Assembly (NCBI RefSeq): GCF_022919835.1
Contig: NZ_CP095074.1
Span: 1,860,001-1,924,000 of the forward strand
Length of the DNA: 64,000 nt
Reading direction: 5' to 3'
Source of the DNA: Halobacillus shinanisalinarum
GTDB taxonomy: Bacteria > Bacillota > Bacilli > Bacillales > Halobacillaceae
Shown here: positions 6,023-21,721 of the stretch, in pieces
Position numbering within the stretch: the stretch's first letter is position 1
How the letters are laid out: every line of letters begins with the position of its first letter
Position numbers and translations under genes: made by a program
The notes under the pieces: generated by a model
What the model was told of the DNA's origin: nothing
The model's input: the letters and a program-made list of their open reading frames with translations, nothing else
The model's database searches: none

Positions 6023-6759
6023 TTATTTTACTTTCATAGCGTTTGATATAACTTCGGCAATTTTTGTGTTGTTGATCGTCCCGGTAAGTTTATCCGATTG
6101 AGGTCCGTACGAATAGACAGGGGCATTGGTAGCACCTTTCTTTTTAGCTGCATCAATTATGTTTTGCCGTCCTCGCGTTTACCCCCATCCTCTTTAGGAA
6201 GGAAGTGACGCTTTCCGCCACCCAGAAGGACCTCGATGTCATGGTCTAATAACATTTGTTTAGCAATTTCATTTTCGTTATCCCGGTTCTCTACATGAGA
6301 AGCAAAAGCAGCCGGTGTAGCGTGAGTAATTCTAGCTGTTGAAACAAGCCCTGTCGACTTATCAGCTTTTTCAGCGGATTCAAGGACAGATTCAACATTA
6401 AAGTGATCCTCGTTCTCACTGTGTTCAACCGTTTTTGGCGCTTTGCCAACAACCCCGTTATCCGTTTTATTCGCAGAGGAAAATGCTGTTACAGCAGCAG
6501 CTGAATCCGTTACGGTATTATCGTGAGAGAAGGTTCTTGCATAACCCAAGTTTGAGAATTGATCCATTGTTAATTCACCTGCAACGTATCCCTTTCCTTT
6601 CAGGTAGGCAGCGGCAGAAACTTGGCTTGGTCCCATACCGTCACCGACTAACATAATTACATTTTCTTCCTTCTTTTGATTAGATTTTACTGAAGAATCA
6701 ACATTTGCTTCAGTATCCAGTCCAGAAATCATCTTCTTGAGGTAAAATCCACTCATCAA
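6023..6759 (-). pseudogene. Alkaline phosphatase, frameshifted and internally deleted
   Basis: The 5' part (from 6759) carries VGDGMGPSQVSAAAY (first metal site) and TVTDSAAAVTAFSS (the nucleophilic Ser motif), then ITHATPAAFASHVENRD. After GGKREDGKT it stops near 6160; another frame continues NIIDAAKKKGATNAPVYSYG and then the normal C-terminus with GTINNTKIAEVI, ending at 6023. Compared with the roughly 430-450 residues of the family, some 150 residues between the two parts are gone, including the distal metal-binding His residues. The signal peptide is also missing. It cannot be an active enzyme. Confidence 0.85.
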
Positions 6760-7253: not shown

Positions 7254-7862
7254 TTATGTCGTATTCTCTTCCATCTGTTTTGCGAGTTTATAAAAGGTCG
7301 TTTTCTTAACCTGAGATTGCTGCATGGCCCGGGTTGCTGTAATTTTCCCTTCTTTCCATTCTATATAAGCTTCTCGAAAGGCATCAGTAATCTGTGTTTT
7401 CGGTCTTCCAAGGGCTTTCCCTTGTTTTAATGCAGCATCAATGCCTTCTCGTTGTCGTTTTCGAATGCGATTTCTTTCTTCTTGCGCCATCCATGATAGG
7501 ATTTGCAACACGAGGTCAGCAATAAAGGTCCCCATGCTGTCTTTATATTGGGTGGTATCCAACAAGGGCATGTCCAAGACAACAATATCAGCCTGAATAT
7601 TTTTTGTAATATCATTCCACTCTTCGACAATTTCGTTTTTGTTTCTTCCGAAACGATCAAGCGCATGAATGTATAAGATGTCACCAGGACGAAGAACGCG
7701 TTTGAGTAGTTGATAGTTTTCGCGCTGAAAATCTTTACCACTAACCTTATCGATGAAAATATCCCGTTCATTAATTCCATATTGTTTCATAGCAGCCATT
7801 TGTCTTTCTTCATTTTGGTCTTTGCTACTAACCCTTATGTAACCCATCCGTCTGCTTTCCAT
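7254..7862 (-). CDS. Serine recombinase (resolvase/invertase family)
   Basis: 202 residues. The catalytic domain (about 5-140) begins MGYIRVSSKDQNEERQ with the nucleophilic Ser, continues with DIFIDKVSGKDFQR and LYIHALDRFGRNKNEI, and has the long E-helix MAQEERNRIRKRQREGI. The C-terminal HTH (about 155-195) reads ITATRAMQQSQVKKTTFYKL. Size and layout match plasmid and transposon resolvases that resolve cointegrates or multimers. No transposase accompanies it. A dyad-rich region upstream (7919-7990) could be its res site. The gene appears intact. Confidence 0.9.
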   Translation of the reverse strand: MESRRMGYIRVSSKDQNEERQMAAMKQYGINERDIFIDKVSGKDFQRENYQLLKRVLRPGDILYIHALDRFGRNKNEIVEEWNDITKNIQADIVVLDMPLLDTTQYKDSMGTFIADLVLQILSWMAQEERNRIRKRQREGIDAALKQGKALGRPKTQITDAFREAYIEWKEGKITATRAMQQSQVKKTTFYKLAKQMEENTT

Positions 7863-8193: not shown

Positions 8194-8209
8194 AGATTGT
8201 CAACAATCT
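8194..8209. promoter_or_regulatory. Palindromic operator upstream of GntR gene
   Basis: AGATTGTCAACAATCT is a near-perfect palindrome directly abutting a TATAAT (8210-8215). A sibling site lies at 9062-9077 in front of the aldolase gene. The pair fits autoregulation plus control of the catabolic genes by the GntR protein between them. Confidence 0.65.
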
Positions 8210-8287
8210 TATAATTTCTTATAATGAAGATATATTGTAATTTAGGACTACTGGTGGAATCAATAAATTAAAAAGGATGCTTCCAAT

Positions 8288-8968
8288 TTGGATATAAATA
8301 TAAAGAAGAGCTCACTAAAGTATCAAATTGCTGAAGGAATTAAGAAAGAGATTTTTCAGGGTAATTTAGATCCTGGTGATAAGGTGACAGAAAATTATAT
8401 AGCAAAAAAATTAGAGGTTAGCAGAGGTCCTGTACGCGAAGCTATTCAATTACTGGTTATGGAAGGGCTGCTTGTTTCTGTCACTTATAAAGAAACAAGG
8501 GTGAGCAGCATTACAACAGAAGAAGTTACAGAACTGTTAATACCCATGAGGATTAATATGGAAACATTCGCATTAAAAAAGGCATATTCCTCATGGAACG
8601 AACGACACTTTGAAAAATTCGATGAATTAGTAGATAAGATGAAGCGTGCTACCATTTTTAATGATATGCCGCTGTTTAATGAGATAGATCTTCAATTTCA
8701 TGAACTTATTATTGTGTCCTCTAATATGAATAATCTTGCACATCTTTGGGCAGGAATCTTAAATCGCATTCGATTACATTTTGTTCATCAAAACAGGTTG
8801 TCATTGGACTTACAAAAGTTTACAGATGAGCATGAGATACTGTTAAATACTTTTAAAACAGGAGACTTAGAGACTGCTGTCCAAGGGCTAAGGGATCATA
8901 TTATAAATACAAACATGCCCCGAGTGGAATTATTGCCGGACCAAGAAAATGAACATAACAAAGAATAA
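8288..8968 (+). CDS. GntR-family regulator, FadR/FCD subfamily
   Basis: About 226 residues from a TTG start (AAAAGGA 10 nt upstream; no better start). The winged helix spans about residues 8-75: LKYQIAEGIKKEIFQGNLDP, then ISRG-like VSRGPVREAIQLLVMEGLL. The C-terminal FCD domain is all-helical and contains the usual metal/ligand-binding residues (DLQFHELII, and a DEHEILL segment with HIINTN). Such regulators bind an organic-acid ligand and usually repress. A hairpin terminator (8995-9031) follows. The operator at 8194 and its twin at 9062 make the aldolase/BCCT/HD cluster the likely target. Confidence 0.85.
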   Translation: MDINIKKSSLKYQIAEGIKKEIFQGNLDPGDKVTENYIAKKLEVSRGPVREAIQLLVMEGLLVSVTYKETRVSSITTEEVTELLIPMRINMETFALKKAYSSWNERHFEKFDELVDKMKRATIFNDMPLFNEIDLQFHELIIVSSNMNNLAHLWAGILNRIRLHFVHQNRLSLDLQKFTDEHEILLNTFKTGDLETAVQGLRDHIINTNMPRVELLPDQENEHNKE

Positions 8969-8994
8969 TCAATTCAAAAATACTTTCTGAATTT

Positions 8995-9031
8995 GAAGGT
9001 GCTTTTTCAAGAATATTGAAAAAGCACCTTC
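8995..9031 (+). terminator. Terminator after GntR gene
   Basis: GAAGGTGCTTTTTCAA pairs perfectly with TTGAAAAAGCACCTTC around a 5-nt loop. It separates the regulator from the aldolase transcript. Confidence 0.85.
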
Positions 9032-9061
9032 TTTGTGTATCCGAAATTATTGTCGATCATA

Positions 9062-9095
9062 AGATTGTTGACAATGTTACTAGATTTGTTATTAT
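9062..9095 (+). promoter_or_regulatory. Promoter and overlapping GntR operator of the aldolase operon
   Basis: AGATTGTTGACAATGT (9062-9077) matches the operator at 8194 in 13 of 16 positions. Its centre contains a -35 TTGACA (9068-9073); TATTAT at 9090-9095 follows after 16 bp. A repressor bound here would cover the -35 box. A second dyad, ATGAATG/CATTCAT, lies at 9114-9135. Confidence 0.65.
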
Positions 9096-9168
9096 ACTAA
9101 CCATGCTACAAAAATGAATGGCATTATTCATTCATTTTATGCAAACAGATTAAAAGGAGGAATTGAAT

Positions 9169-9963
9169 ATGAAGGGTTACAAGGAAGAGCGTGTTAGTGG
9201 GAAAGGTGTTCAGGATTATTTGCAAAGGCCGATATTTAATAGTGTTGAAGAGGAACGTCTGCACAACAAGCAGCGCTTAACAGCTGCCTTTCGTTTATTT
9301 GCTCGGTTTGGATTTACAGAAGGAATAGCAGGTCATATTACATACCGAGATCCAGAATACAAGAATCATATGTGGGTAAATCCATACGGCATTCCTTTTA
9401 ACAAGATTAAGACCTCAGACCTTGTCTTGGTCAATGAGGAGGGAGAAGTAGTCGAGGGAAAGTATTCTATACATAAATCCGCACTAATGATTCATGCAGG
9501 TGTACACAAAGCAAGACCGGATGTTATTGCTTCTGCCCATGCGCATCCTTTATACGGAAAGACTTGGTCCTCTACAGGAAGGTTGCTAGACCCGCTAACA
9601 CAAGATGCATGTGCATTTTATAACGATCATTCTGTATCGGATGAATTTTCAGGTGTTGTATATGAGGAAGATGAGGGACAAAGAATCGCAAGAGCATTAG
9701 GAAATAATAAAGCTGCCTTTTTGAGGAGTCATGGACCGTTAACAGTTGGACAGTCTGTAGACTCCGCAGCCTTTTGGTTCATCACACTGGAGCGTTCCTG
9801 CCAAGCTCAATTGTTAGCCGAGGCAGCTGGCATTGTTAATCCTATAGATGAAGAAAATGCAGCATTAACAGCTGAACAAGTTGGAAGGGAACAAGATGGA
9901 TGGGATAATTTTCAACCATTGTGGGAGCGAATTGTCAGCGAACAGCCTGATTTACTGGATTAA
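9169..9963 (+). CDS. Class II aldolase/adducin family protein
   Basis: 264 residues from ATG 9169, preceded by GGAGG (9155-9160). Zn-binding motifs of the family are visible: SAHAHPLYGKT near residue 125 and FLRSHGPLTVG near 188, with the GIAGHITYRD phosphate/substrate-loop region near 48. Members cleave or epimerise hydroxylated carbon chains, or decarboxylate, depending on subfamily; the substrate here cannot be read off. It is the first gene of an operon with a BCCT transporter and a PhnZ-like HD protein, so the substrate is probably a product of the imported compound. Confidence 0.85.
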   Translation: MKGYKEERVSGKGVQDYLQRPIFNSVEEERLHNKQRLTAAFRLFARFGFTEGIAGHITYRDPEYKNHMWVNPYGIPFNKIKTSDLVLVNEEGEVVEGKYSIHKSALMIHAGVHKARPDVIASAHAHPLYGKTWSSTGRLLDPLTQDACAFYNDHSVSDEFSGVVYEEDEGQRIARALGNNKAAFLRSHGPLTVGQSVDSAAFWFITLERSCQAQLLAEAAGIVNPIDEENAALTAEQVGREQDGWDNFQPLWERIVSEQPDLLD

Positions 9964-10057
9964 TTCATTAGAAGTGTGAAATGAAATGCTATTAAAGATA
10001 ATGTTTTATTACATCTATAAAAAATAGGAGAAGGGGGATATTATTAATAAAAAAGAA

Positions 10058-11620
10058 ATGGAAAAACAAATGAACAATAAGTCGTATGATGTACCTCTTA
10101 TTGTTATAAGTCTATTCATAGTATCAGTTATCGTGGTGTTTTTAGGGCTACTTCCTGAAAAGGGAACAGCGTTTGCTAATAAGGTATTTGTATTTTTAAC
10201 TAACTTATTTGGCGCGCCTATACTCTTATTTACATTTGGTGTTGTAGCATTTTTGGTTTATATTTCCTTTAGTAAGTATGGAGATATTCGACTTGGAAAA
10301 GAAAAACCTCAATTTTCAACAAAAAGTTGGATAGCGATGATGTTAACTGCTGGCTTAGGATCTGCAACGGTTTATTGGGCTTTTACCGAATGGGCTTTTT
10401 ATTATAACACTCCCGGTTTGGGAGCGGAACCTCAGACCAGTGCAGCTTATGAGTGGGCGCTTGCTTATAATTTCTTTCATTGGGGAATAAGTGCTTGGGC
10501 TCTGTACTGTATAGCTGCTTTACCTATTGCTTACCATTTTTATGTTCGAAAGAATAAGGGGTTAAGCCTTAGTTCGGTTGTTGGAGAAGTTACTGGTTTT
10601 AAATCAAACGGCGTTGTTGGAAAAATTGTTGATATTATTTTTATTTTCACTTGTCTTGGTGGACTAAGTATTACATTAGGGTTAAGTGTCCCGTTATTGT
10701 CGCAAGGAATGGCTAGTATTCTTGGTATAGAAACAAGCTTTACTATCGACTTGATTATCATCCTAATCATTTCTGTTGTCTTCACTCTAAGTGCCTATTT
10801 AGGTATTGAGAAAGGTGTTAAAAGAATTACAGATCTTAATAGTGTGTTTGTGCTTGGATTTATTGGTCTCATTTTTCTTATTGGACCTACCACGTTTATG
10901 ATAAATAACTCCACAAATGCGGTGGGGTTGATGGTTCAAAACTTTGTTCACATGAGTTTATGGACGGACCCTATAGAAAATGGTTCTTTTCCAAATGATT
11001 GGACCATCTTTTATTGGCTTTATTGGATTACTTATGCACCATTTATGGGTGTGTTTGTCACTAGGATATCAAGAGGTAGGAAGATTAAAGAACTTATTTT
11101 TAACATGCTGATAAGTGGAAGTTTAGGATGTTGGATTTTCTTTGGTATCTTACAAAACATTAGTATGGACAGAGATATTCGAGGCATTGTTGATGTATCG
11201 GGAAGTCTAGATGTGGATGGAGGAAATCAAGCTATTATTGATGTTTTAAACACATTGCCTTTATCAACATTTTTCATCCTATTTTTCGTGGTTGTGTCCA
11301 TGCTATTTTTAGCATCTACTTTGGATTCAGCTTCCTATACCCTTGCAGCTACGGCAACAAAAGGGCTTAAAGACCATGAAGATCCTTCTCCTTTTCATAG
11401 ATTATTTTGGTGTTTGGTCATTGTTTTAGTACCGTTAACTATAATTTTTATCAATGCTCCTATGAATACTATAAAGACGGCTGCCATTGTTACATCCATT
11501 CCTTTAATATTCGTATTGCTTATCATGATTTACGGTTTGGTTAAATGGATGAGAGAAGACTTCGGTGATACGTCTGCCCATGTTATCAAAGAAAAGAACA
11601 AACGAAAAAAAGCAAGCTAA
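10058..11620 (+). CDS. BCCT-family transporter
   Basis: About 520 residues with 12 hydrophobic segments and the BCCT signature (GDIRLGKEKPQFSTKSW near residue 75, WAFTEWAFYY near 110). BCCT proteins import quaternary ammonium or sulfonium compounds such as betaine, choline, carnitine and DMSP, driven by Na+ or H+ or by exchange. The substrate-site segment usually written FYWAWW reads FYWLYWITYAPFMGVF here, so one Trp of the aromatic box is Tyr and Ala is Leu; glycine betaine may not be the main substrate. The annotated ATG is 20 nt from the nearest Shine-Dalgarno; an in-frame ATT at 10043 lies 5 nt after AAGGGGG and may be the true start. Cotranscribed with neighbours. Confidence 0.9.
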   Translation: MEKQMNNKSYDVPLIVISLFIVSVIVVFLGLLPEKGTAFANKVFVFLTNLFGAPILLFTFGVVAFLVYISFSKYGDIRLGKEKPQFSTKSWIAMMLTAGLGSATVYWAFTEWAFYYNTPGLGAEPQTSAAYEWALAYNFFHWGISAWALYCIAALPIAYHFYVRKNKGLSLSSVVGEVTGFKSNGVVGKIVDIIFIFTCLGGLSITLGLSVPLLSQGMASILGIETSFTIDLIIILIISVVFTLSAYLGIEKGVKRITDLNSVFVLGFIGLIFLIGPTTFMINNSTNAVGLMVQNFVHMSLWTDPIENGSFPNDWTIFYWLYWITYAPFMGVFVTRISRGRKIKELIFNMLISGSLGCWIFFGILQNISMDRDIRGIVDVSGSLDVDGGNQAIIDVLNTLPLSTFFILFFVVVSMLFLASTLDSASYTLAATATKGLKDHEDPSPFHRLFWCLVIVLVPLTIIFINAPMNTIKTAAIVTSIPLIFVLLIMIYGLVKWMREDFGDTSAHVIKEKNKRKKAS

Positions 11621-11697
11621 CACGATGATTAGTTCATATTTTTGAAAATTAAATTCTTAATAAATTTCTTAGTAAAGCATTAAAGGAGGATATATCA

Positions 11698-12255
11698 ATG
11701 CAAAAAGTAGTTGATTTCAGGAAAATGGTAGAGGGCACAAAAGAGGAATTTGAATATCTGGAAAAACTAGAGGAAGGTTTCAATACAGGACTTCCTGACC
11801 GTTTACTAAAAAAGTTGGATGAATTGAAAAATAGCTTTAGTGGCTATCGAATATCTCGATATGAGCATTCTTTACAATCTGCAACCAGAGCGTATCAAAA
11901 TAACGAAGATGAAGATATGATTGTGGCAGCTTTATTACATGATATTGGAGATGAGTTGGCACCACATACTCATGGTGAAATGGTTGCAGCTATCCTCAAG
12001 CCATTTGTTTCTGAAAAGGCAACATGGATTGTGAAACACCATGGAGTATTTCAGCAGCATTATATGGCTCATATGACAGAAACAGAAAAAAATGCTCGAG
12101 ATATCTTCAAAGACAACCCTTTTTATCAAGCATGTGTGAATTTCTGTGAGAATTACGATCAGAATTGCTTTGACCCCGACTTCGAGTATTTACCAGTGGA
12201 GTTTTTTGAGCCGATGGTAAGAAAAGTCTTTACACGTTCTCCTAAATTTGAGTAA
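11698..12255 (+). CDS. HD-domain protein, PhnZ/TmpB-like oxygenase candidate
   Basis: 185 residues; ATG with AAGGAGG 9 nt upstream. An HD domain with VAALLHDIGDELAPHTHGE near residue 78 and IVKHHG near 112 gives the His/Asp set for two metals. The RYEHSLQSATRAY segment just before the HD core resembles the EHSLQ segment of PhnZ, a mixed-valence di-iron oxygenase that cleaves the C-P bond of hydroxy-phosphonates, and of its relative TmpB. A plain phosphohydrolase is the alternative. The partners (quaternary-amine transporter, aldolase) favour oxidative cleavage of a small imported compound. Last gene of the operon, closed by a strong terminator. Confidence 0.75.
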   Translation: MQKVVDFRKMVEGTKEEFEYLEKLEEGFNTGLPDRLLKKLDELKNSFSGYRISRYEHSLQSATRAYQNNEDEDMIVAALLHDIGDELAPHTHGEMVAAILKPFVSEKATWIVKHHGVFQQHYMAHMTETEKNARDIFKDNPFYQACVNFCENYDQNCFDPDFEYLPVEFFEPMVRKVFTRSPKFE

Positions 12256-12273
12256 TGCCTTCTAAATATCAAG

Positions 12274-12314
12274 CAATAAAAAGGAAATGGCTATGCACCA
12301 TTTCCTTTTTATTG
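12274..12314 (+). terminator. Terminator of the aldolase-BCCT-HD operon
   Basis: A perfect 17-bp stem (CAATAAAAAGGAAATGG with its complement) around a 7-nt loop, symmetrical enough to work both ways. Confidence 0.85.
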
Positions 12315-14204: not shown

Positions 14205-14613
14205 CTATATAAGTTGAACTTAATTTTTATATTTATCACTTTCGGGTAAACACCAAGTAAAGTATGCTTTTCTACGTTTCCTCTCGAAAATTTGACTCTT
14301 ACCCAACGTTTAAAATCGTCATGATCTTAGACAATGCGCAGATTCATCATGCCAAATTGATTCAGCCATTCCTGGAAGAAAATCGAGACCGAATTGAGCT
14401 GGTATTCTTACCTCCTTACAGTCCACAATTGAACTTGATGGAAGGCGTCTGGAAATGGCTGAAAGAAATGGTCATTAACAATGTCTTTTTTAGCAGTGTC
14501 CAGAAAATTATCCTCGCTGTTCGTGCGTTTCTTAAAGACGTCAAGTAGCGAAGAAAAGAAGCGATTATTCGCTTATGTGTTCGACTATAAAATATTTGTT
14601 CAACTTATATAGC
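14205..14613. mobile_element. IS630-family remnant with both terminal repeats
   Basis: CTATATAAGTTGAAC at 14205-14219 is repeated inverted as GTTCAACTTATATAG at 14599-14613, a perfect 15-bp pair. Only about 410 bp separate the ends, against roughly 1.1 kb for an intact copy, so the front of the element is deleted while the ends survive. The right end is 2 bp from the stop of the ABC permease gene at 14616. It could still move if a full-length copy supplies transposase. Confidence 0.8.
14264..14548 (+). pseudogene. IS630 transposase, C-terminal part
   Basis: The reading frame holds the second half of the DDE domain: IVMILDNAQIHHAKLIQPFL (second Asp), then FLPPYSPQLNLMEGVWKWLK (final Glu). The first Asp and the N-terminal HTH are missing, so the protein is inactive. 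Confidence 0.85.
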
Positions 14614-14615
14614 AG

Positions 14616-15308
14616 CTAAGTTCTTCTTGCTAAAGATGATTCATATTTGTTAGTCAGTGTAACTACAATATATGCAATTCCCCAATACATTAAAGCAGCT
14701 ACAATAAACGCTTCAACATAATATGAGTTTGAAGCTGCAATAAGTCTAGCTTCAGCAAATATGTCAACTACAGTAATCATAAACCCTAATGAAATTGCCT
14801 TCATTACAACTAAAAATGCATTCCCAAACTCCGGTAATGCCTCCACAAGTGCCTGAGGAGTTATAATTCTAAGAAATGCCTGGAAAGGCGTATATCCTAA
14901 TGATCGTGCAGCTTCTATTTGTCCATAACTTACCGAGAGAAATGAAGCTCTTATTGTTTCTGCTTGAAATGATGATACTGTTAGTGATACAGCAACTATG
15001 AGTATAACAACAGGTGACATATTATGAGGATTATAATCTAAGTTTAGTAAATTTGTAAAAAAGCTAACAATCCCAGGTAGGGAATAATACATTATAAAGA
15101 TAAACACAATTAATGGTGTACCTCTCATAAATAACTTAAACAACATAACAATTTGCTTAATTACAGGCACATTATATTCCTGAATTAATGCCATTACAGT
15201 ACCCACTAAAATAGATAAGATAAATATAGTGACAGCTAGTGCAACAGTTTGTGGAACTACATTTAATATTCCAAAAAAGTTCTCAACTAATATCTCAAAA
15301 TTAAGCAT
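14616..15308 (-). CDS. Polar amino acid ABC transporter, permease 2
   Basis: 230 residues, about five membrane helices, with the EAA loop of HisM/GlnP-type permeases (EAARSLGYTPFQAFLRIITP near residue 145). It starts one base after the stop of the other permease (15309), so the two are translationally coupled and probably form a heterodimer in the membrane. Works with the ATPase at 16975 and the lipoprotein at 16120. The IS630 remnant abuts its 3' end. Confidence 0.9.
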   Translation of the reverse strand: MLNFEILVENFFGILNVVPQTVALAVTIFILSILVGTVMALIQEYNVPVIKQIVMLFKLFMRGTPLIVFIFIMYYSLPGIVSFFTNLLNLDYNPHNMSPVVILIVAVSLTVSSFQAETIRASFLSVSYGQIEAARSLGYTPFQAFLRIITPQALVEALPEFGNAFLVVMKAISLGFMITVVDIFAEARLIAASNSYYVEAFIVAALMYWGIAYIVVTLTNKYESSLARRT

Positions 15309-16016
15309 TTACATCCCCCTTGCATTAAGTCCCGAATCCAACTTATATTTTCTTGTTTTCTTTTCAAATAGACGAACCATACCATCTGAAAGAAATGTAA
15401 AAATAATATAAATTATCGCAACGGTAATAAATACTGTTACCTGGTTCATTCCAAACGATGCTGCTGCAATTAACTCTGCGCGTCCCATAATATCAGCGAC
15501 ACCTAGAGCAAAAACAAGCGAAGTATCATGTATTAAGTGGATCAAGGCGTTCCCCCATCCAGGCAAAGCAACAGGTACAACTTGAGGAAGTATAATTCTA
15601 AAGAATTTTTTAGTTGGAGTATAACCAAAGCTATCTGCAGCTTCGTGTTGCCCCTTATCGACTGCTTTATATGCTGCTCTTAAAACTTCAGTAAGATAAC
15701 CACCATGATATAATGTCAAAGCCAAAATAGCAGCAACAGTAGCACTTAGATTACTAGCATCAATACCAAAGTTTGCTAAAATTGGTGGTAATGCATAATA
15801 AACTAAAAACAATTGAATAATGATTGGTACACTTCTTGTAAATGATGAAATTACTACAGTAAATTGCTTAAGTACAGGTATATCTTTAACGTTAATCATG
15901 GTAAGTAATGATCCAAGTAATAACCCTAATACAGCGGATACCACTAAAATAATTAAAGAAACATGAGCTACTTCTAACAATAAAGATATTATTTCTAGTG
16001 TATTTGGTGCATCCAT
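15309..16016 (-). CDS. Polar amino acid ABC transporter, permease 1
   Basis: About 235 residues from ATG 16016 (MDAPNTLEI; AAGGGGAG about 9 nt upstream; upstream in-frame ATGs lack spacing). Five to six membrane segments and the EAA loop EAADSFGYTPTKKFFRIILP. Family HisQ/GltJ. Directly coupled to permease 2. The operon order is ATPase, binding protein, permease 1, permease 2. Confidence 0.88.
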   Translation of the reverse strand: MDAPNTLEIISLLLEVAHVSLIILVVSAVLGLLLGSLLTMINVKDIPVLKQFTVVISSFTRSVPIIIQLFLVYYALPPILANFGIDASNLSATVAAILALTLYHGGYLTEVLRAAYKAVDKGQHEAADSFGYTPTKKFFRIILPQVVPVALPGWGNALIHLIHDTSLVFALGVADIMGRAELIAAASFGMNQVTVFITVAIIYIIFTFLSDGMVRLFEKKTRKYKLDSGLNARGM

Positions 16017-16119
16017 ACCGATGATTCTCCCCTTCATAAATAAATTTAATGCCCCATTATAAGTAAATTCATTCTCTTTTCTTATAATGGGGCACAACCA
16101 TCAGATTAATTAAAATCTT

Positions 16120-16950
16120 TTACTTAGTCACTTCATATTGGAATATATCTTCTCCATAGTATTCTTCAGAAATCTCAGATAGTGTTCCGTCTTCTCTTAA
16201 TTCTTTCAATGCTTGGTTAACCTCTTCAACTAGTTGTTCATTTTCTTCTGATTTATGAATCAGCAAAATTGTTTCGCCTACATAAATAGGGTCGGTTCCT
16301 CTCACTTTTAAACCAAGTTCTTCAATAACCTCATTTTGTCCCAAGTTAGCAGGACCAACAAAAGCATCATATTTACCAGAGTCTATTTCTTTTAGACGCT
16401 GAGCGTATGGAATATCACCACTAGATTCCTCAAGATCAAGTTTATGTTCAGGATTTTCCTCTTGCCAATCCAATACTACTTGTAATGTTCCTCCTCCAGC
16501 TGTAAAAGGTGTGATATTCTTTCCAACTAGATCCTCAAGAGTTTCAATATCACTGTCTTCTCTAACATACATTTTTATCAGACTTCTTCCATTTGGTTCT
16601 TCCGGTACATAATATTGCTCTTTACGTTCAGGAGTCGGATAGAATCCACCCACATTAAGTTCATATTTCCCTGTTTTTAGACCAGTTTCTTGAGCACTAT
16701 CAGCTACTGCCTGAATATTAAATTCATATCCTTCTAATTTTTCATCTATCGCTCTTAATACATCCGGCTCATAACCTAGGATTTCACCATCTGGTGTTTG
16801 CCAGCTTAAATTCTTGGAAGTTGGAGGTGTAGTAACTTGTATAGTTCGTACCTCCTCACTTGCTGTTTCATCTGTAACTGACTCCTCGTTACATGCTGCT
16901 AATACAAAAGTCATTCCTAAAGCTAATAAAGACATTGATAATTTTTTCAT
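16120..16950 (-). CDS. Amino acid ABC transporter, substrate-binding lipoprotein
   Basis: 276 residues from ATG 16950. The lipoprotein signal ends at LAAC (MTFVLAAC), so the protein is anchored outside the membrane. A type-3 periplasmic-binding fold follows (SBP_bac_3), with PDVLRAIDEKLEGYEF, LKTGKYELNVGGFYPTPERK and a late IYVGETILLIHKSE hinge strand. The usual ligand for this family is a polar amino acid or an opine. Given the opine dehydrogenase gene in the same unit, an opine-like N-substituted amino acid is the preferred guess. Confidence 0.88.
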   Translation of the reverse strand: MKKLSMSLLALGMTFVLAACNEESVTDETASEEVRTIQVTTPPTSKNLSWQTPDGEILGYEPDVLRAIDEKLEGYEFNIQAVADSAQETGLKTGKYELNVGGFYPTPERKEQYYVPEEPNGRSLIKMYVREDSDIETLEDLVGKNITPFTAGGGTLQVVLDWQEENPEHKLDLEESSGDIPYAQRLKEIDSGKYDAFVGPANLGQNEVIEELGLKVRGTDPIYVGETILLIHKSEENEQLVEEVNQALKELREDGTLSEISEEYYGEDIFQYEVTK

Positions 16951-16974
16951 AAATAACACCCCTTGTTTATATTT

Positions 16975-17739
16975 TTATTGTGTAGCTTCCATCATTTCAG
17001 CAGCTTCTGCATAATAATTTTTCAAAAATTGTTTTGTTCTTTCATTTTGTGAGTTCTCAAAAATTTGTTCAGGTGATCCTTCTTCAACAATTTTTCCTTT
17101 TTCCATAAATACAATTTTATTTGATACCTTTCGTGCAAAACTCATTTCATGAGTTACTAGGAGAATTGTTACACCAGTTTTTGCAACACTTTCGATAACT
17201 TTTAACACTTCAGCTACCAACTCCGGATCGAGTGAAGATGTTGGTTCATCAAATAAAATTACTTCTGGTTCAACAGCTAAAGCTCTTGCAATACTTACCC
17301 TTTGCTGTTGTCCTCCTGATAATCTAGAAGGATATTCATTTTCTTTTTCTAACAAACCTACTTTTTCTAATAAATCAATACTTTTTTCATAAGCTTCTTT
17401 TTTTGACTTCTTCTGAACTGTAATTTGGGCATCCATCACATTTTCTACTACTGTTTTATTTTTAAACAGATTAAATTGTTGAAAAACCATTGCAGTGTTA
17501 CGTCTTAGCTGAAGTATTTCTTTTTTATTAATATTTTTAAAGTCTGCACTTACATCTAACAGTTGCATTTGACCTTCGTCGGGTTCAACTAGATAATTAA
17601 TACACTTTAATATAGTTGTCTTACCAGTACCACTTGGTCCTATAAAAGTGACAACGTCACCTTTGTTAACAGTTAAATCAACACCTTTTAAAACTTCTTT
17701 ATCACCAAATGATACTTTCAAATTTTGAATATTTAACAT
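16975..17739 (-). CDS. Amino acid ABC transporter, ATPase
   Basis: 254 residues. Walker A GPSGTGKTT near residue 34, Q-loop FQQFNLF, signature LSGGQQQRVSIARAL near 142, Walker B VILFDEPTSSLDPE and the switch His in LLVTHEMSFARKV. Closest in type to GlnQ/HisP. It powers uptake by the two permeases downstream. It is the first transporter gene after the opine dehydrogenase, with a 134-bp gap that has no clear terminator. Confidence 0.93.
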   Translation of the reverse strand: MLNIQNLKVSFGDKEVLKGVDLTVNKGDVVTFIGPSGTGKTTILKCINYLVEPDEGQMQLLDVSADFKNINKKEILQLRRNTAMVFQQFNLFKNKTVVENVMDAQITVQKKSKKEAYEKSIDLLEKVGLLEKENEYPSRLSGGQQQRVSIARALAVEPEVILFDEPTSSLDPELVAEVLKVIESVAKTGVTILLVTHEMSFARKVSNKIVFMEKGKIVEEGSPEQIFENSQNERTKQFLKNYYAEAAEMMEATQ

Positions 17740-17873
17740 TTAGAAATCCCACCCTTTTTGAAATCTCTTTCAAATAACTATTGACTATCCTTGAGAGAAA
17801 TTATTAATCAATACTTTAAAACCACTGGATATCAATCTATAAATCTTTTCTTTATGATAACTTTTAGAATCAT

Positions 17874-18929
17874 TTAAACTTTTTGAGTCAGCCCCCCATA
17901 ACTGGATAGTTCTTCGAAAGTTATGTTCTCGAGGTTAACCCCCTCTTTTCTATAGTCCACTGTTGAAAGTAAAGATGTTATATCGATAAGTGAATCTGTG
18001 TAAGGTATCTCAATACCAGCTTTCTTAGCAATTTCTGAAATTGCCACTAAACCAAAAGGTATATCTTCGGTAAAGTATCTATGTTTAAAAGTAGTTGGAC
18101 CTGCTCCCTCTGGGAATAAACCAGGTAACGCCTCATATAAAGTGGAATAACTAGTTCCATAAAAATCATTTAGAATAGTAAGAATATCTTTTGTTTCTAC
18201 ATGGAACAAATCAGCTATTTCCCTTCTTTCATCATCAACTTTTTCAATGTATCTAACTATTAAAGGGGATATACCATCTGGATAAAATAGAAATTCTTGC
18301 GAATCATCAATCCTGCTGGCATTAAATAATGAAATTGGTACATGAACCACAACGTTTGAATTATTTAATGAAGTTTCAAATACATTTTTGGAAGGAACTA
18401 GATGTGGGAATCTCTCTAAAAATTCTGATGATAATGATGGCTGTCCTTTTGAAGTAGCTAGTGTACTTACTAAGACGTTATTTTTAATTCTTCTTACACT
18501 TACTGCCCCTTCATCATCTGCATCACTAATGAAAGGCTGTGCGCTTGTTTCTGCAATAGTAATATTTTTAGTCTCAATATCTTCTCCAAGTATTTGTTTA
18601 CATTCAACAGCCCCCCAATATCCTGGGATAAACACTATTGTCTGATCGTTCTTTAGTAACGGCTTTAATTCTCTAATAATTGGTTTATGGCCATCTGCAG
18701 TAGTTGAAATGATAATAATTTCAGCATCCTGAATGACTTCTTCCATTGATGTGTGTACTTCTAAATTTATGTATCCAGAATAAACACCTTTTATTTCTAA
18801 CCCATTCCTAGATATTCGTTCTGCTCTTTCTGCATTTCTTGTATATAATTTGACCTTTTCTTCATTTAAAGCTAGATAGCTAGCTATCGCTTGACCTGTA
18901 TTACCTCCGCCTATCACTGCATATGTCAT
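17874..18929 (-). CDS. NAD/NADP octopine/nopaline dehydrogenase family protein
   Basis: 351 residues. The N-terminal Rossmann domain starts MTYAVIGGGNTGQAIASYLA (GxGNxG) and has IIIISTTADGH; the C-terminal opine-dehydrogenase domain contains NVVVHVPISLFNASRID near 205, where the family has its catalytic His, and a late YGTSYSTLYEALPGLFPEG stretch. These enzymes make or oxidatively split opines (amino acid joined to a 2-oxo acid). With an uptake system and a GntR regulator beside it, breakdown of an imported opine-like compound is more likely than synthesis. No nicotianamine-synthase-like partner is present, so a staphylopine-type metallophore is unlikely. Confidence 0.85.
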   Translation of the reverse strand: MTYAVIGGGNTGQAIASYLALNEEKVKLYTRNAERAERISRNGLEIKGVYSGYINLEVHTSMEEVIQDAEIIIISTTADGHKPIIRELKPLLKNDQTIVFIPGYWGAVECKQILGEDIETKNITIAETSAQPFISDADDEGAVSVRRIKNNVLVSTLATSKGQPSLSSEFLERFPHLVPSKNVFETSLNNSNVVVHVPISLFNASRIDDSQEFLFYPDGISPLIVRYIEKVDDERREIADLFHVETKDILTILNDFYGTSYSTLYEALPGLFPEGAGPTTFKHRYFTEDIPFGLVAISEIAKKAGIEIPYTDSLIDITSLLSTVDYRKEGVNLENITFEELSSYGGLTQKV

Positions 18930-18962
18930 AGAAACACCCCTAAGTTTATTTTTATTGTTTGA

Positions 18963-19652
18963 TTATTTGCTCTTTCTGTCTGATTTGTTAACGCTTTCAT
19001 AATTTTCAACAGCTTTAATCGCCACTTTCATTGCATTTATAATATGCTTTTCAATTTCTAATTCTGCGTTAACCTTATCTCCTTTAATCATGTAATTAAG
19101 TATGACCTCATGTTCATCAGATGAAGTTTTTATATCTACAAAGTGTTTATGAGCTAAATGTCTATATCTATTAATACGATCATTTAGTTGAAAAATAATG
19201 TTTACAACTGTTGTATTATCACTGATAGAGTAAATAGCACTGTGAAACTTACCACCCAAATTCTCTGTATCTGTATAATCCTCTAATCTAGCGTTTAATT
19301 TCACCATTTTTGTAAGATATGATAAATGCCCGATGTGTTCTTCTGTAAGATTATCGATTGCATCTCTGATTAGAATTCCTTCTAATTTACTACGCATTAC
19401 AAATAATTCTTTACATTCTTTTATTGATATAGGAGAAACACAAAATGTTCCATTCGAATTACGAACAACTAGCCCCTCTACTTCAAGTCTTTGTAATGCC
19501 TCTCTAAGAGGTGTCCTGCTTATTGCCAATTCATTTCCTAATTCCTTATTCACAATAGGTTGTCCTGGTTCAAGAAAAGATTTTATAATTTTTTCTTTAA
19601 TCTGCTTATAAACAATATCTTTGGCTGAAATCCTACTCAAATTATTTTCCAT
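18963..19652 (-). CDS. GntR-family regulator, FCD subfamily
   Basis: About 230 residues from ATG 19652; a GTG further upstream is also possible because AAAGGGG lies there. Winged helix: VYKQIKEKIIKSFLEPGQPI, then ISRTPLREALQRLEVEGLVV. The FCD ligand domain follows with ENLGGKFHSAIYSIS and a final HIINAMKVAI. It heads the opine operon (33 bp before the dehydrogenase). A palindrome TTGTATACAA between its promoter and start is the classical operator shape for this subfamily, so it probably represses itself and the genes after it. Confidence 0.85.
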   Translation of the reverse strand: MENNLSRISAKDIVYKQIKEKIIKSFLEPGQPIVNKELGNELAISRTPLREALQRLEVEGLVVRNSNGTFCVSPISIKECKELFVMRSKLEGILIRDAIDNLTEEHIGHLSYLTKMVKLNARLEDYTDTENLGGKFHSAIYSISDNTTVVNIIFQLNDRINRYRHLAHKHFVDIKTSSDEHEVILNYMIKGDKVNAELEIEKHIINAMKVAIKAVENYESVNKSDRKSK

Positions 19653-19693
19653 AGTTTTAAAAATAATCACCACCCCTTTGTATAAGTGAATAA

Positions 19694-19733
19694 TTGTATA
19701 CAAATATTATAGCATACATATTTCCGATTACAA
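19694..19733 (-). promoter_or_regulatory. Promoter and operator of the opine unit
   Basis: On the minus strand: -35 TTGTAA (19733-19728), 16 bp, -10 TATAAT (19711-19706), then the perfect palindrome TTGTATACAA (19703-19694) just after the -10. A repressor here would block the start of transcription. Confidence 0.7.
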
Positions 19734-20521: not shown

Positions 20522-21721
20522 CTAAATTTTGAAAGCCTCTTTACGTTTTAATAAAGCATAAATCCAATGAATGAGCTTATTTGCACAAGCAATGATGGCC
20601 ACCTTATGGGGTTTCCCTTCTTCACGCTTTTTGTCATAAAATGCTTTTAGTTTTGGATTACGGTTGTTGGTTATCCCACATTGCGCTGCTGTATAAAGTA
20701 CATGTCGGAGGCGGGAGGAGCCCCTTTTGGTAATTTTGTTGATCGTGGCCTTAAACTTGCCAGATTCGAAAATACTTGGATCAATTCCGGCATAAGCTAC
20801 AAGTTTTTTTGGATGGCTAAACGGATCGATTTCCCCAATCTCGGCGATGATTGTGGCCGCAATCTTGCCACCAATACCTGGGATCGATCGAATAATCCTA
20901 TATTCTTCAAATTCTTCTGCCAGGGCATCTATCTCTTTTTTAACTTGAGATAGGTGCTCTTGGTATTGTAGAAGCAATTGAATGGTGAGATTTAAACAAA
21001 CTAAGTTACTACTATATACATTATGATTAAATGGATCTCGCTCAGCTGCATCTTTTAGTTTCTGAGCCTTTTCTAAAGCCCACTTCAAAGAACGTTTAGC
21101 CCCCTGCCTCAAAATGACTTCGGCCATTTGATCAACCGTTTCCTTCTTTACCCCTTCTGGTGTTTGATAGTAACGGAGGGTTGATAAGGAAGTCGGTGAA
21201 TATAAGGCTGCGAATACCTTCTTATATTCAGGGAAGACTTGGTCCAGTATGGTTTGAAATTGGAGTTTAGCTTGGACATACATACCTGTTAAAGATTCAT
21301 ATTGCCTCGTTAAATGACGTAAATTCATCGTTCGTATGCTCTTCTTTTGAAAGGCTTCAAGATCTTCGTTTTGGTAGTACAACTCCCCTAAACGGAAAGC
21401 ATCGATGGCATCGGTTTTCACTTTCCTCAAGCTACTTTTTCTAGATTCATAGGAAAGCACTGGATTAATTAAAAAATAGGTGATTTGATGTTCTTCTAAA
21501 AACTGAAGTACAGGCTCGTGATAGTGCCCCGTTGATTTAAATATCACGACTGGAGGTAGACCAGAAACATCCTCAACTTCTTGATAAAACCGATAAAAGT
21601 CACATAAACCTAATGCATTATGTTCGAATTTAAAGCTTTTCTTGTAAGGATTTTTCTTCTGTAAAAAGGCTTGAACTTGGCTTTCTCCTTTTGCGACATC
21701 CAGGCCAATGACTGGATCCAT
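20522..21721 (-). CDS. IS110-family transposase (DEDD)
   Basis: 399 residues, full length. The RuvC-like domain begins MDPVIGLDVAKGESQVQAFL (first catalytic Asp), with VIFKSTGHYHEP (Glu position changed in part) and LRKVKTDAIDAFRLGELYYQ (the DxxD pair). The C-terminal transposase_20 domain carries IRSIPGIGGKIAATIIAEIG and TKRGSSRLRHVLYTAAQC, including the catalytic Ser region. ATG preceded by AAGGAG. IS110 enzymes recombine DNA guided by a bridge RNA coded in the element's non-coding end; here that end is 21722-21925. No terminal inverted repeats are expected or seen. The gene looks intact. Confidence 0.93.
   Translation of the reverse strand: MDPVIGLDVAKGESQVQAFLQKKNPYKKSFKFEHNALGLCDFYRFYQEVEDVSGLPPVVIFKSTGHYHEPVLQFLEEHQITYFLINPVLSYESRKSSLRKVKTDAIDAFRLGELYYQNEDLEAFQKKSIRTMNLRHLTRQYESLTGMYVQAKLQFQTILDQVFPEYKKVFAALYSPTSLSTLRYYQTPEGVKKETVDQMAEVILRQGAKRSLKWALEKAQKLKDAAERDPFNHNVYSSNLVCLNLTIQLLLQYQEHLSQVKKEIDALAEEFEEYRIIRSIPGIGGKIAATIIAEIGEIDPFSHPKKLVAYAGIDPSIFESGKFKATINKITKRGSSRLRHVLYTAAQCGITNNRNPKLKAFYDKKREEGKPHKVAIIACANKLIHWIYALLKRKEAFKI

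What the first reader, a model, noticed from the sequence alone, without database searches (positions are those of the whole stretch)
8194..12314. Self-contained cluster: GntR, class II aldolase, BCCT transporter, PhnZ-like HD oxygenase
Seen: three genes in one direction behind a promoter whose -35 box lies inside AGATTGTTGACAATGT; the same dyad precedes the GntR gene; a strong terminator closes the unit. Known: BCCT proteins import quaternary ammonium or sulfonium compounds; PhnZ/TmpB-type HD proteins are di-iron oxygenases acting on phosphonates, and TmpB acts on a trimethylammonium phosphonate. Inferred: the operon imports a small charged-nitrogen (or sulfonium) compound, cleaves it oxidatively and passes a hydroxylated piece to the aldolase. 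I know of no described pathway with this exact set.
Basis: partly seen in the sequence, partly recalled or inferred. Interest (0 to 1): 0.75.

Follow-up and report, generated by a model that had tools for sequence, protein, structure and literature searches.

The report
Two-oxygenase operon for betaine-like compounds
A small, patchily distributed gene set in a bacterium with many betaine-type transporters appears to import a betaine-like compound and shorten it with two different oxygen-using iron enzymes, one of which is probably mislabelled as an aldolase; the exact compound is still unknown.

Summary
In detail: GntR/FCD regulator, 'class II aldolase', BCCT transporter and HD protein lie in a row (window 8194-12314), with one dyad (ATTGT-NN-ACAAT) at both promoters. 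The dyad sits at both promoters in 5 of the 6 aldolase-HD loci I read (window included); in two relatives' genomes its exact form ATTGTYRACAAT occurs nowhere else. It is very probably the regulator's operator. The HD protein is of the diiron-oxygenase type (fold nearest PhnZ, TmpB, MIOX; six metal ligands in 91 of 91 aligned) but lacks the YxxE loop of PhnZ/TmpB: a separate subfamily. The 'aldolase' is probably no aldolase: it lacks FucA's catalytic Glu (24 of 24 aligned) and groups with the non-haem iron oxygenases NovR, TqaM and pyruvic oxime dioxygenase. A quaternary-ammonium (or sulfonium) substrate is supported by the BCCT here and, independently, by ProV/OpuAC-type ABC transporters and betaine-aldehyde-dehydrogenase-like genes in Natribacillus and Salicibibacter. 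Best reading: import of an onium carboxylate and O2-dependent shortening by two iron enzymes. Substrate and order of steps are not settled; the phosphonate reading is disfavoured. New variant of known enzyme kinds; my searches of open-licence papers found no description of the set.

The parts
8194..8209 (.). operator dyad AGATTGTCAACAATCT over the -35 box of the GntR gene
   Evidence: same place in B. piscicola, Natribacillus (ATTGTAAACAAT) and two of three Salicibibacter loci
8288..8968 (+). GntR/FCD transcriptional regulator (TTG start)
   Evidence: 64% to B. piscicola, 62% to Natribacillus, 49% to the two regulators of GntR-MR-MR-BCCT operons compared
8995..9031 (+). terminator-like hairpin behind GntR (16 pairs)
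9062..9077 (.). operator dyad AGATTGTTGACAATGT containing TTGACA
   Evidence: footprint in relatives
9169..9963 (+). class II aldolase-fold protein of NovR/TqaM type; probable non-haem Fe(II) oxygenase
10058..11620 (+). BCCT transporter of the YeaV/DddT side of the family
11698..12255 (+). HD-domain protein, probable mixed-valent diiron oxygenase of a subfamily without YxxE
12274..12314 (.). closing hairpin, 18 pairs, likely terminator

Best explanation
A GntR/FCD-controlled catabolic unit. Shown by sequence: regulator, conserved operator-like dyad at both promoters, onium-type transporter, two iron-enzyme-type proteins. Inferred: the regulator represses both promoters by covering the -35 boxes until the imported compound (or a product) binds it. 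The BCCT protein brings in a quaternary-ammonium (less likely sulfonium) compound that carries a carboxylate with a hydroxyl or keto group near it. The 'aldolase' is a mononuclear Fe(II) oxygenase of NovR/TqaM type that oxidatively removes a carbon from an alpha-hydroxy or alpha-keto acid, and the HD protein is a mixed-valent diiron oxygenase that binds a C-OH carbon and oxidatively cleaves the adjacent bond (R-CH(OH)-X + O2 -> R-COOH + X-OH). Together they shorten the onium chain, most likely towards glycine betaine or a homologue, usable as osmoprotectant or as food. The order of the two enzymes and the compound itself are not determined.
Against: No protein of either subfamily has a known substrate in my results. 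Most HD loci show no onium gene: 32 of 91 have one (an upper count), 22 have a housekeeping marker (coaD or gyrB) within 7 kb, 31 have neither and no class II gene. The aldolase clade also occurs without HD (L149-L151, and the second copy L206 in a Salicibibacter), and Natribacillus and Salicibibacter have no BCCT match near it. The aldolase model is weak at 127-139 and 162-164, near the metal site. The own genome already has an L-carnitine dehydrogenase operon with its own BCCT, which argues against plain L-carnitine. One Salicibibacter locus (L207) lacks an exact dyad. YeaV of E. coli has been linked to non-onium acids too (PMC10971958).
Confidence: 0.55

Rival explanations
1. Sulfonium version: the unit imports a dimethylsulfonio carboxylate such as 4-dimethylsulfonio-2-hydroxybutyrate (DMSHB) or DMSP, and one of the oxygenases performs the oxidative decarboxylation DMSHB -> DMSP.
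For: Best solved BCCT relative is the DMSP transporter DddT; TqaM-type chemistry is oxidative decarboxylation of an alpha-hydroxy acid; the DMSHB decarboxylase is unknown in most organisms (PMC11306096); a DddD-sized CoA-transferase gene lies near HD on one Pseudomonas plasmid (DddD is my reading by size and setting).
Against: Neighbours in Natribacillus, Salicibibacter, Rhizobium and Pseudomonas are choline/betaine-type genes. I did not search for DMSP lyases or other sulfonium genes.
Confidence: 0.12
2. Phosphonate version: a TmpB-like HD enzyme releases phosphate from a hydroxylated trimethylammonium phosphonate.
For: Nearest named families are phosphonate HD oxygenases; the GntR scores best, below cut-off, with a phosphonate-associated regulator (96 of 271.5); 8 of 91 HD loci have a TmpA/BBOX-like dioxygenase within 7 kb.
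Against: YxxE absent, Glu in 0 of 91; Asp after HDxG and Gln at the TmpB Lys place in 91 of 91; scores far below the TmpB and PhnZ1 cut-offs (36.1 of 300, 26.5 of 300); no TmpA-like match near window, L010, L011 or in L205, L207, L208.
Confidence: 0.08
3. Non-oxidative version: the class II protein is a genuine Zn aldolase or decarboxylase and the HD protein a phosphohydrolase; the cluster handles a phosphorylated sugar-like compound.
For: Database names; 4xxf, the best relative by sequence (246.8 bits), is deposited as fuculose-1-phosphate aldolase.
Against: Catalytic Glu and Tyr of FucA absent in 24 of 24, and in 4xxf too; fold nearest oxygenases and 4xxf, FucA far behind; HD fold nearest oxygenases; transporter type.
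Confidence: 0.08
4. Carnitine version: the substrate is carnitine or its D-form, cleaved by HD at the C-OH carbon to glycine betaine plus a two-carbon acid.
For: BCCT relatives at 42-46% sit in carnitine monooxygenase clusters; the product would be glycine betaine; HD lies near trimethylamine-type methyltransferase and GcvT-type flavoprotein genes in Gammaproteobacteria.
Against: An L-carnitine dehydrogenase operon with a separate BCCT exists in the same genome; it leaves the second oxygenase without a clear role.
Confidence: 0.15

Closest known systems
[quoted passage not shown]
   Same: fold and H...HD...H...H...D ligand set (motif from PMC8177086 passages)
   Different: no YxxE loop, Asp after HDxG, Gln instead of TmpB's Lys at +4 of the fifth ligand, 14-26% identity in the structure alignments; own motif YDQNCFDP
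NovR, TqaM, pyruvic oxime dioxygenase (class II aldolase-fold non-haem iron oxygenases)
   Same: three metal His, missing FucA Glu73 and Tyr113, closest folds apart from 4xxf
   Different: His102 where NovR and TqaM have Asn (16 of 16 in the halophile clade); genomic setting with BCCT or ABC onium transport
DddT, YeaV and CntAB-cluster BCCT transporters
   Same: model NF007412 at 638.9 bits, just under its cut-off of 647 (I recall the model as E. coli YeaV); 42-46% identity to carnitine-cluster BCCTs
   Different: nearer (52-60%) to the BCCTs of GntR-MR/MLE-MR/MLE-BCCT operons
TmpA-TmpB operon
   Same: two iron oxygenases in tandem acting on an onium compound (PMC8177086 passages)
   Different: the 2-oxoglutarate hydroxylase is replaced here by a class II aldolase-fold enzyme; importer is BCCT; regulator GntR/FCD; phosphonate recognition residues missing

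Membership tests
[quoted passage not shown]
   91 of 91 aligned, window included; 25 of 25 in A1, chosen from 120 listed
[quoted passage not shown]
   needs purified protein
PhnZ/TmpB subfamily (phosphonate) | YxxE substrate loop | tested here: not met
   F47..Y50 in window; at the Glu place 85 Tyr, 5 Phe, 1 Cys, 0 Glu of 91
PhnZ/TmpB subfamily (phosphonate) | NCBIfam cut-offs | tested here: not met
   36.1 of 300 (TmpB), 26.5 of 300 (PhnZ1), 37.5 of 214.6 (Phn-HD)
class II aldolases (FucA type) | catalytic Glu73 and Tyr113 | tested here: not met
   Ala and Gln in 24 of 24 (window and 23 chosen from 120 listed relatives)
class II aldolase-fold non-haem iron oxygenases (NovR/TqaM/POD) | three metal His; fold nearest to these | tested here: met
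class II aldolase-fold non-haem iron oxygenases (NovR/TqaM/POD) | Fe(II)-dependent O2 chemistry | not testable with these tools
   needs assay
BCCT transporters | PF02028 and TIGR00842 above cut-off | tested here: met
   455.6 of 27 and 454.8 of 407.55 bits
GntR/FCD-operator regulon | same dyad at own and target promoter, conserved | tested here: met
   both promoters in 5 of 6 aldolase-HD loci read
GntR/FCD-operator regulon | binding of the regulator to the dyads | not testable with these tools
   needs a binding assay

The most novel reading that the evidence does not exclude
The HD subfamily (YDQNCFDP, Arg54, Asp85, Gln119) is a new branch of mixed-valent diiron oxygenases that cleaves alpha-hydroxycarboxylates of onium compounds (R-CH(OH)-COO- + O2 -> R-COO- + bicarbonate), working with interchangeable partners (NovR/TqaM-type iron enzyme, TmpA/BBOX-like or PhyH-like dioxygenase, amidohydrolase plus Rieske protein) to turn unusual betaines, possibly including DMSHB, into glycine betaine or DMSP across Bacillota, Chloroflexota, Actinomycetota and Pseudomonadota.
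Probability: 0.15. Interest if true: 0.85.

Novelty: new variant of a known kind. Interest (0 to 1): 0.6.

Why it matters
The 2020 review names three HD oxygenases, MIOX, PhnZ and TmpB (PMC8177086 passages). This is a broad, uniform further group with all metal ligands but a different substrate pocket, tied by operon, operator and transporter to onium compounds. It gives a compact, testable unit (two small soluble enzymes, one importer, one operator) for finding a new route of betaine or osmolyte turnover, and it suggests that 'aldolase' is the wrong label for a large family (6655 relatives at E <= 1e-60 among 7998 scored; residues checked in 24). The related question of which enzyme decarboxylates DMSHB is open in most organisms (PMC11306096 passages).

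Tried and rejected
An apparent HD-class II fusion in L018 and L024 was rejected: the long frame is a nonsense extension and the class II gene starts just behind HD. The aldolase loci L149-L151 gave no informative operon (a dipeptidyl-peptidase-like neighbour). The lack of overlap between TmpA-like and class II partners (8 and 10 of 91, overlap 0) is not significant, since under one overlap is expected. G+C of the unit (35.8%) is not unusual (window 37.8%; about the 22nd percentile of equal stretches), so composition does not show transfer. The patchy distribution suggests it: HD in 1 of 101 relatives, 1 of 44 of the family, 1 of 398 of the class, each time the own genome only; in the order sample 4 of 397, of which G726 (26%, three stops) was dropped, leaving own, B. 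piscicola and Natribacillus. 15 plasmid records match at 39-54%; 10 of these regions were read. The HD set of 80 genome loci is the best 80 of 345 that encode a relative; one search scored only 8000 candidates and lists 120, so distant members are undersampled. The 32 of 91 onium count includes weak generic matches (L098, L010, L042) and many related gammaproteobacteria; markers needed E <= 1e-10 over half the reference, so cut-off genes were missed. The DMSHB link remains a guess. An E. coli study lists carnitine but also pantothenate and kynurenate as YeaV candidates (PMC10971958 passages), so a BCCT of this side need not be strict for onium compounds. A beta-alanine betaine search was seen as a listing only and gave nothing used. 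Papers: PMC8177086, PMC5216522, PMC11880133, PMC11306096 and PMC10971958 were seen as passages; all others as search listings; the PhnZ and TmpB original papers were not held.
Full report
WHAT IS THERE. The window is bases 1860001-1924000 of a 4.89 Mb single-contig genome with about 14 BCCT genes (15 matches, two of them neighbouring pieces). Four genes run in one direction: GntR/FCD 8288-8968, class II aldolase/adducin 9169-9963, BCCT 10058-11620, HD 11698-12255. Hairpins follow GntR (8995-9031) and the HD gene (12274-12314). A resolvase-type gene (7254-7862) and a transposase-like piece (14264-14548) lie on either side (named by eye).

THE OPERATOR. The dyad is AGATTGT-NN-ACAAT(C/G)T. In the own genome the two sites here are the only matches with at most one mismatch. 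ATTGTYRACAAT occurs twice in the whole B. piscicola genome, at the GntR and aldolase promoters, and once in Natribacillus halophilus, at the aldolase promoter (sequences); the Natribacillus GntR promoter has ATTGTAAACAAT. Of the 6 places in the own genome the other 4 lie inside mechanically called ORFs. In Salicibibacter, two of three aldolase-HD loci have the exact dyad at both promoters and the third (L207) has none in the 18 kb read. So both promoters carry it in 5 of 6 loci, window included. A related regulator (49% identity) in genome G732 also has ATTGTCGACAAT upstream; the one on the Psychrobacter plasmid has no ATTGTNNACAAT in the region read.

THE TRANSPORTER. It scores 638.9 against a cut-off of 647 for NF007412 (I recall this model as E. 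coli YeaV) and its best solved relative is DddT, 411 bits, CaiT 264. At E <= 1e-165 (60% identity or more) it occurs in 3 of 397 order genomes: own, B. piscicola and G732 (at most 3 candidates per genome were scored). In G732 and on a Psychrobacter plasmid (52%) the order is GntR - two mandelate racemase/muconate lactonizing-type enzymes - BCCT; on a Pseudomonas plasmid (45%) a BCCT precedes two such enzymes. BCCTs at 42-46% belong to carnitine monooxygenase clusters. So a related regulator-plus-importer pair is joined to different enzyme sets, which suggests a shared or similar carboxylated onium substrate handled in different ways (inference). The own genome's nearest BCCT paralogue (44%) lies in an operon with an L-carnitine dehydrogenase above cut-off (421.9 of 414), so plain L-carnitine is less likely here.

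CONSERVED CONTEXT. Six further pairs share the same longest-contig length (5503, 3292, 29790, 4113, 74560, 7611), which points to the same contig but was not read. Natribacillus and Salicibibacter hold a longer version without BCCT: aldolase - HD - amidohydrolase-2 - Rieske protein - flavin reductase in all four, followed in L010, L205 and L208 by a Glu/Leu-dehydrogenase-like and a TPP enzyme (84% and 84-85% to those of L010), a BADH-like gene in L010 and L205, GntR further on, an alpha/beta hydrolase in all four, and a ProV/OpuAC-type ABC transporter in L010, L205 and L208; L207 has a more distant ABC set with a choline-type binding protein (81.3 of 379 bits).

WIDER HD CONTEXT. Within 7 kb of 91 HD genes (flanks often shorter): GcvT-type flavoprotein 20, MttB-like 18, class II aldolase-fold 10 (7 outside Bacillota, at 27-34% identity), amidohydrolase-2 10, TmpA/BBOX-like 8, Rieske 4, BADH-like 4, choline-dehydrogenase-like 3, choline-binding 2, BCCT 2. 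Any onium marker: 32; coaD or gyrB: 22, no overlap; 31 with neither and no class II gene. Loci of one lineage are not independent. Notable: Pseudomonas plasmid TmpA-like - HD - choline-binding protein - choline dehydrogenase - aldehyde dehydrogenase; Rhizobium plasmid amidohydrolase/Rieske - HD - choline dehydrogenase - choline-binding - aldehyde dehydrogenase; Sphingobium plasmid class II - HD - hydrolase. In a midpoint-rooted tree the window HD falls in a clade of 13 (support 0.99) with five named Bacillota and seven metagenome proteins of unknown host; the next wider clade (33 proteins, 0.73) holds Chloroflexota and Actinomycetota.

MECHANISM. Shown: gene order, dyads, families, residues. 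Inferred: repression by GntR at the -35 boxes; uptake of an onium carboxylate; O2-dependent removal of carbon from hydroxy- or keto-acid intermediates by a mononuclear and a dinuclear iron enzyme. In Natribacillus and Salicibibacter the added amino-acid-dehydrogenase-like, TPP and aldehyde-dehydrogenase-like genes would fit a second, classical route from a keto acid to the same shortened acid (inference). The compound is unknown.

NOVELTY. Open-licence full-text searches for PhnZ/HD diiron oxygenases, TmpB with betaine, and HD domain + class II aldolase + BCCT (the last found 0 papers with all three terms) listed no description of this subfamily or set; subscription papers were not searched.

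Noticed in passing
own genome 3159266-3165376 (L182:3267-9377): Separate carnitine operon: keto-acid cleavage enzyme-like protein, L-carnitine dehydrogenase (421.9 of 414 bits), thiolase-like and two CoA-transferase-like proteins (by eye) and a BCCT (44% to the window's).
   Followed up: partly
L193:8279-13070 and L194:3802-8497: GntR - two mandelate racemase/muconate lactonizing-type enzymes - BCCT operon, regulator and transporter related to the window's; substrate unknown.
   Followed up: partly
L010:84-18243, L205:446-14758, L208:759-14676: Long version of the unit: aldolase, HD, amidohydrolase-2, Rieske, flavin reductase, Glu/Leu-dehydrogenase-like, TPP enzyme, alpha/beta hydrolase, ProV-type ABC transporter, GntR.
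   Followed up: partly
L093 (Pseudomonas plasmid NZ_CP115240.1 36311-52844): An 837-aa CoA transferase (DddD-sized) near TmpA-like - HD - choline catabolism genes, with an iron alcohol dehydrogenase beyond an IS66 element.
   Followed up: no
L019, L021, L025, L028, L033 and relatives: Gammaproteobacterial run LysR, MttB-like, GcvT-type flavoprotein, HD; in several relatives also diaminopropionate ammonia-lyase-like and M24 peptidase-like genes: a second uncharacterised onium cluster.
   Followed up: partly
L050, L051, L059, L064 and relatives; L014, L040, L073: The same HD family lies within 7 kb of coaD or gyrB, without any of the partner genes tested, in 22 of 91 loci.
   Followed up: no
window 6157-6759: Alkaline-phosphatase-like ORF of only 200 aa (named by eye), possibly a broken gene.
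   Followed up: no
window 14616-19703: Amino-acid-type ABC transporter genes, a dehydrogenase and a second GntR/FCD-like gene (named by eye), another self-contained catabolic-looking cluster; transposase-like ORF at 20522-21721.
   Followed up: no
L153:8565-11924 and L154:8962-12282: Relatives of the aldolase (65%) sit beside a solute-symporter-like protein (by eye) and an agmatinase-family protein, suggesting a guanidino-acid substrate for that branch.
   Followed up: no
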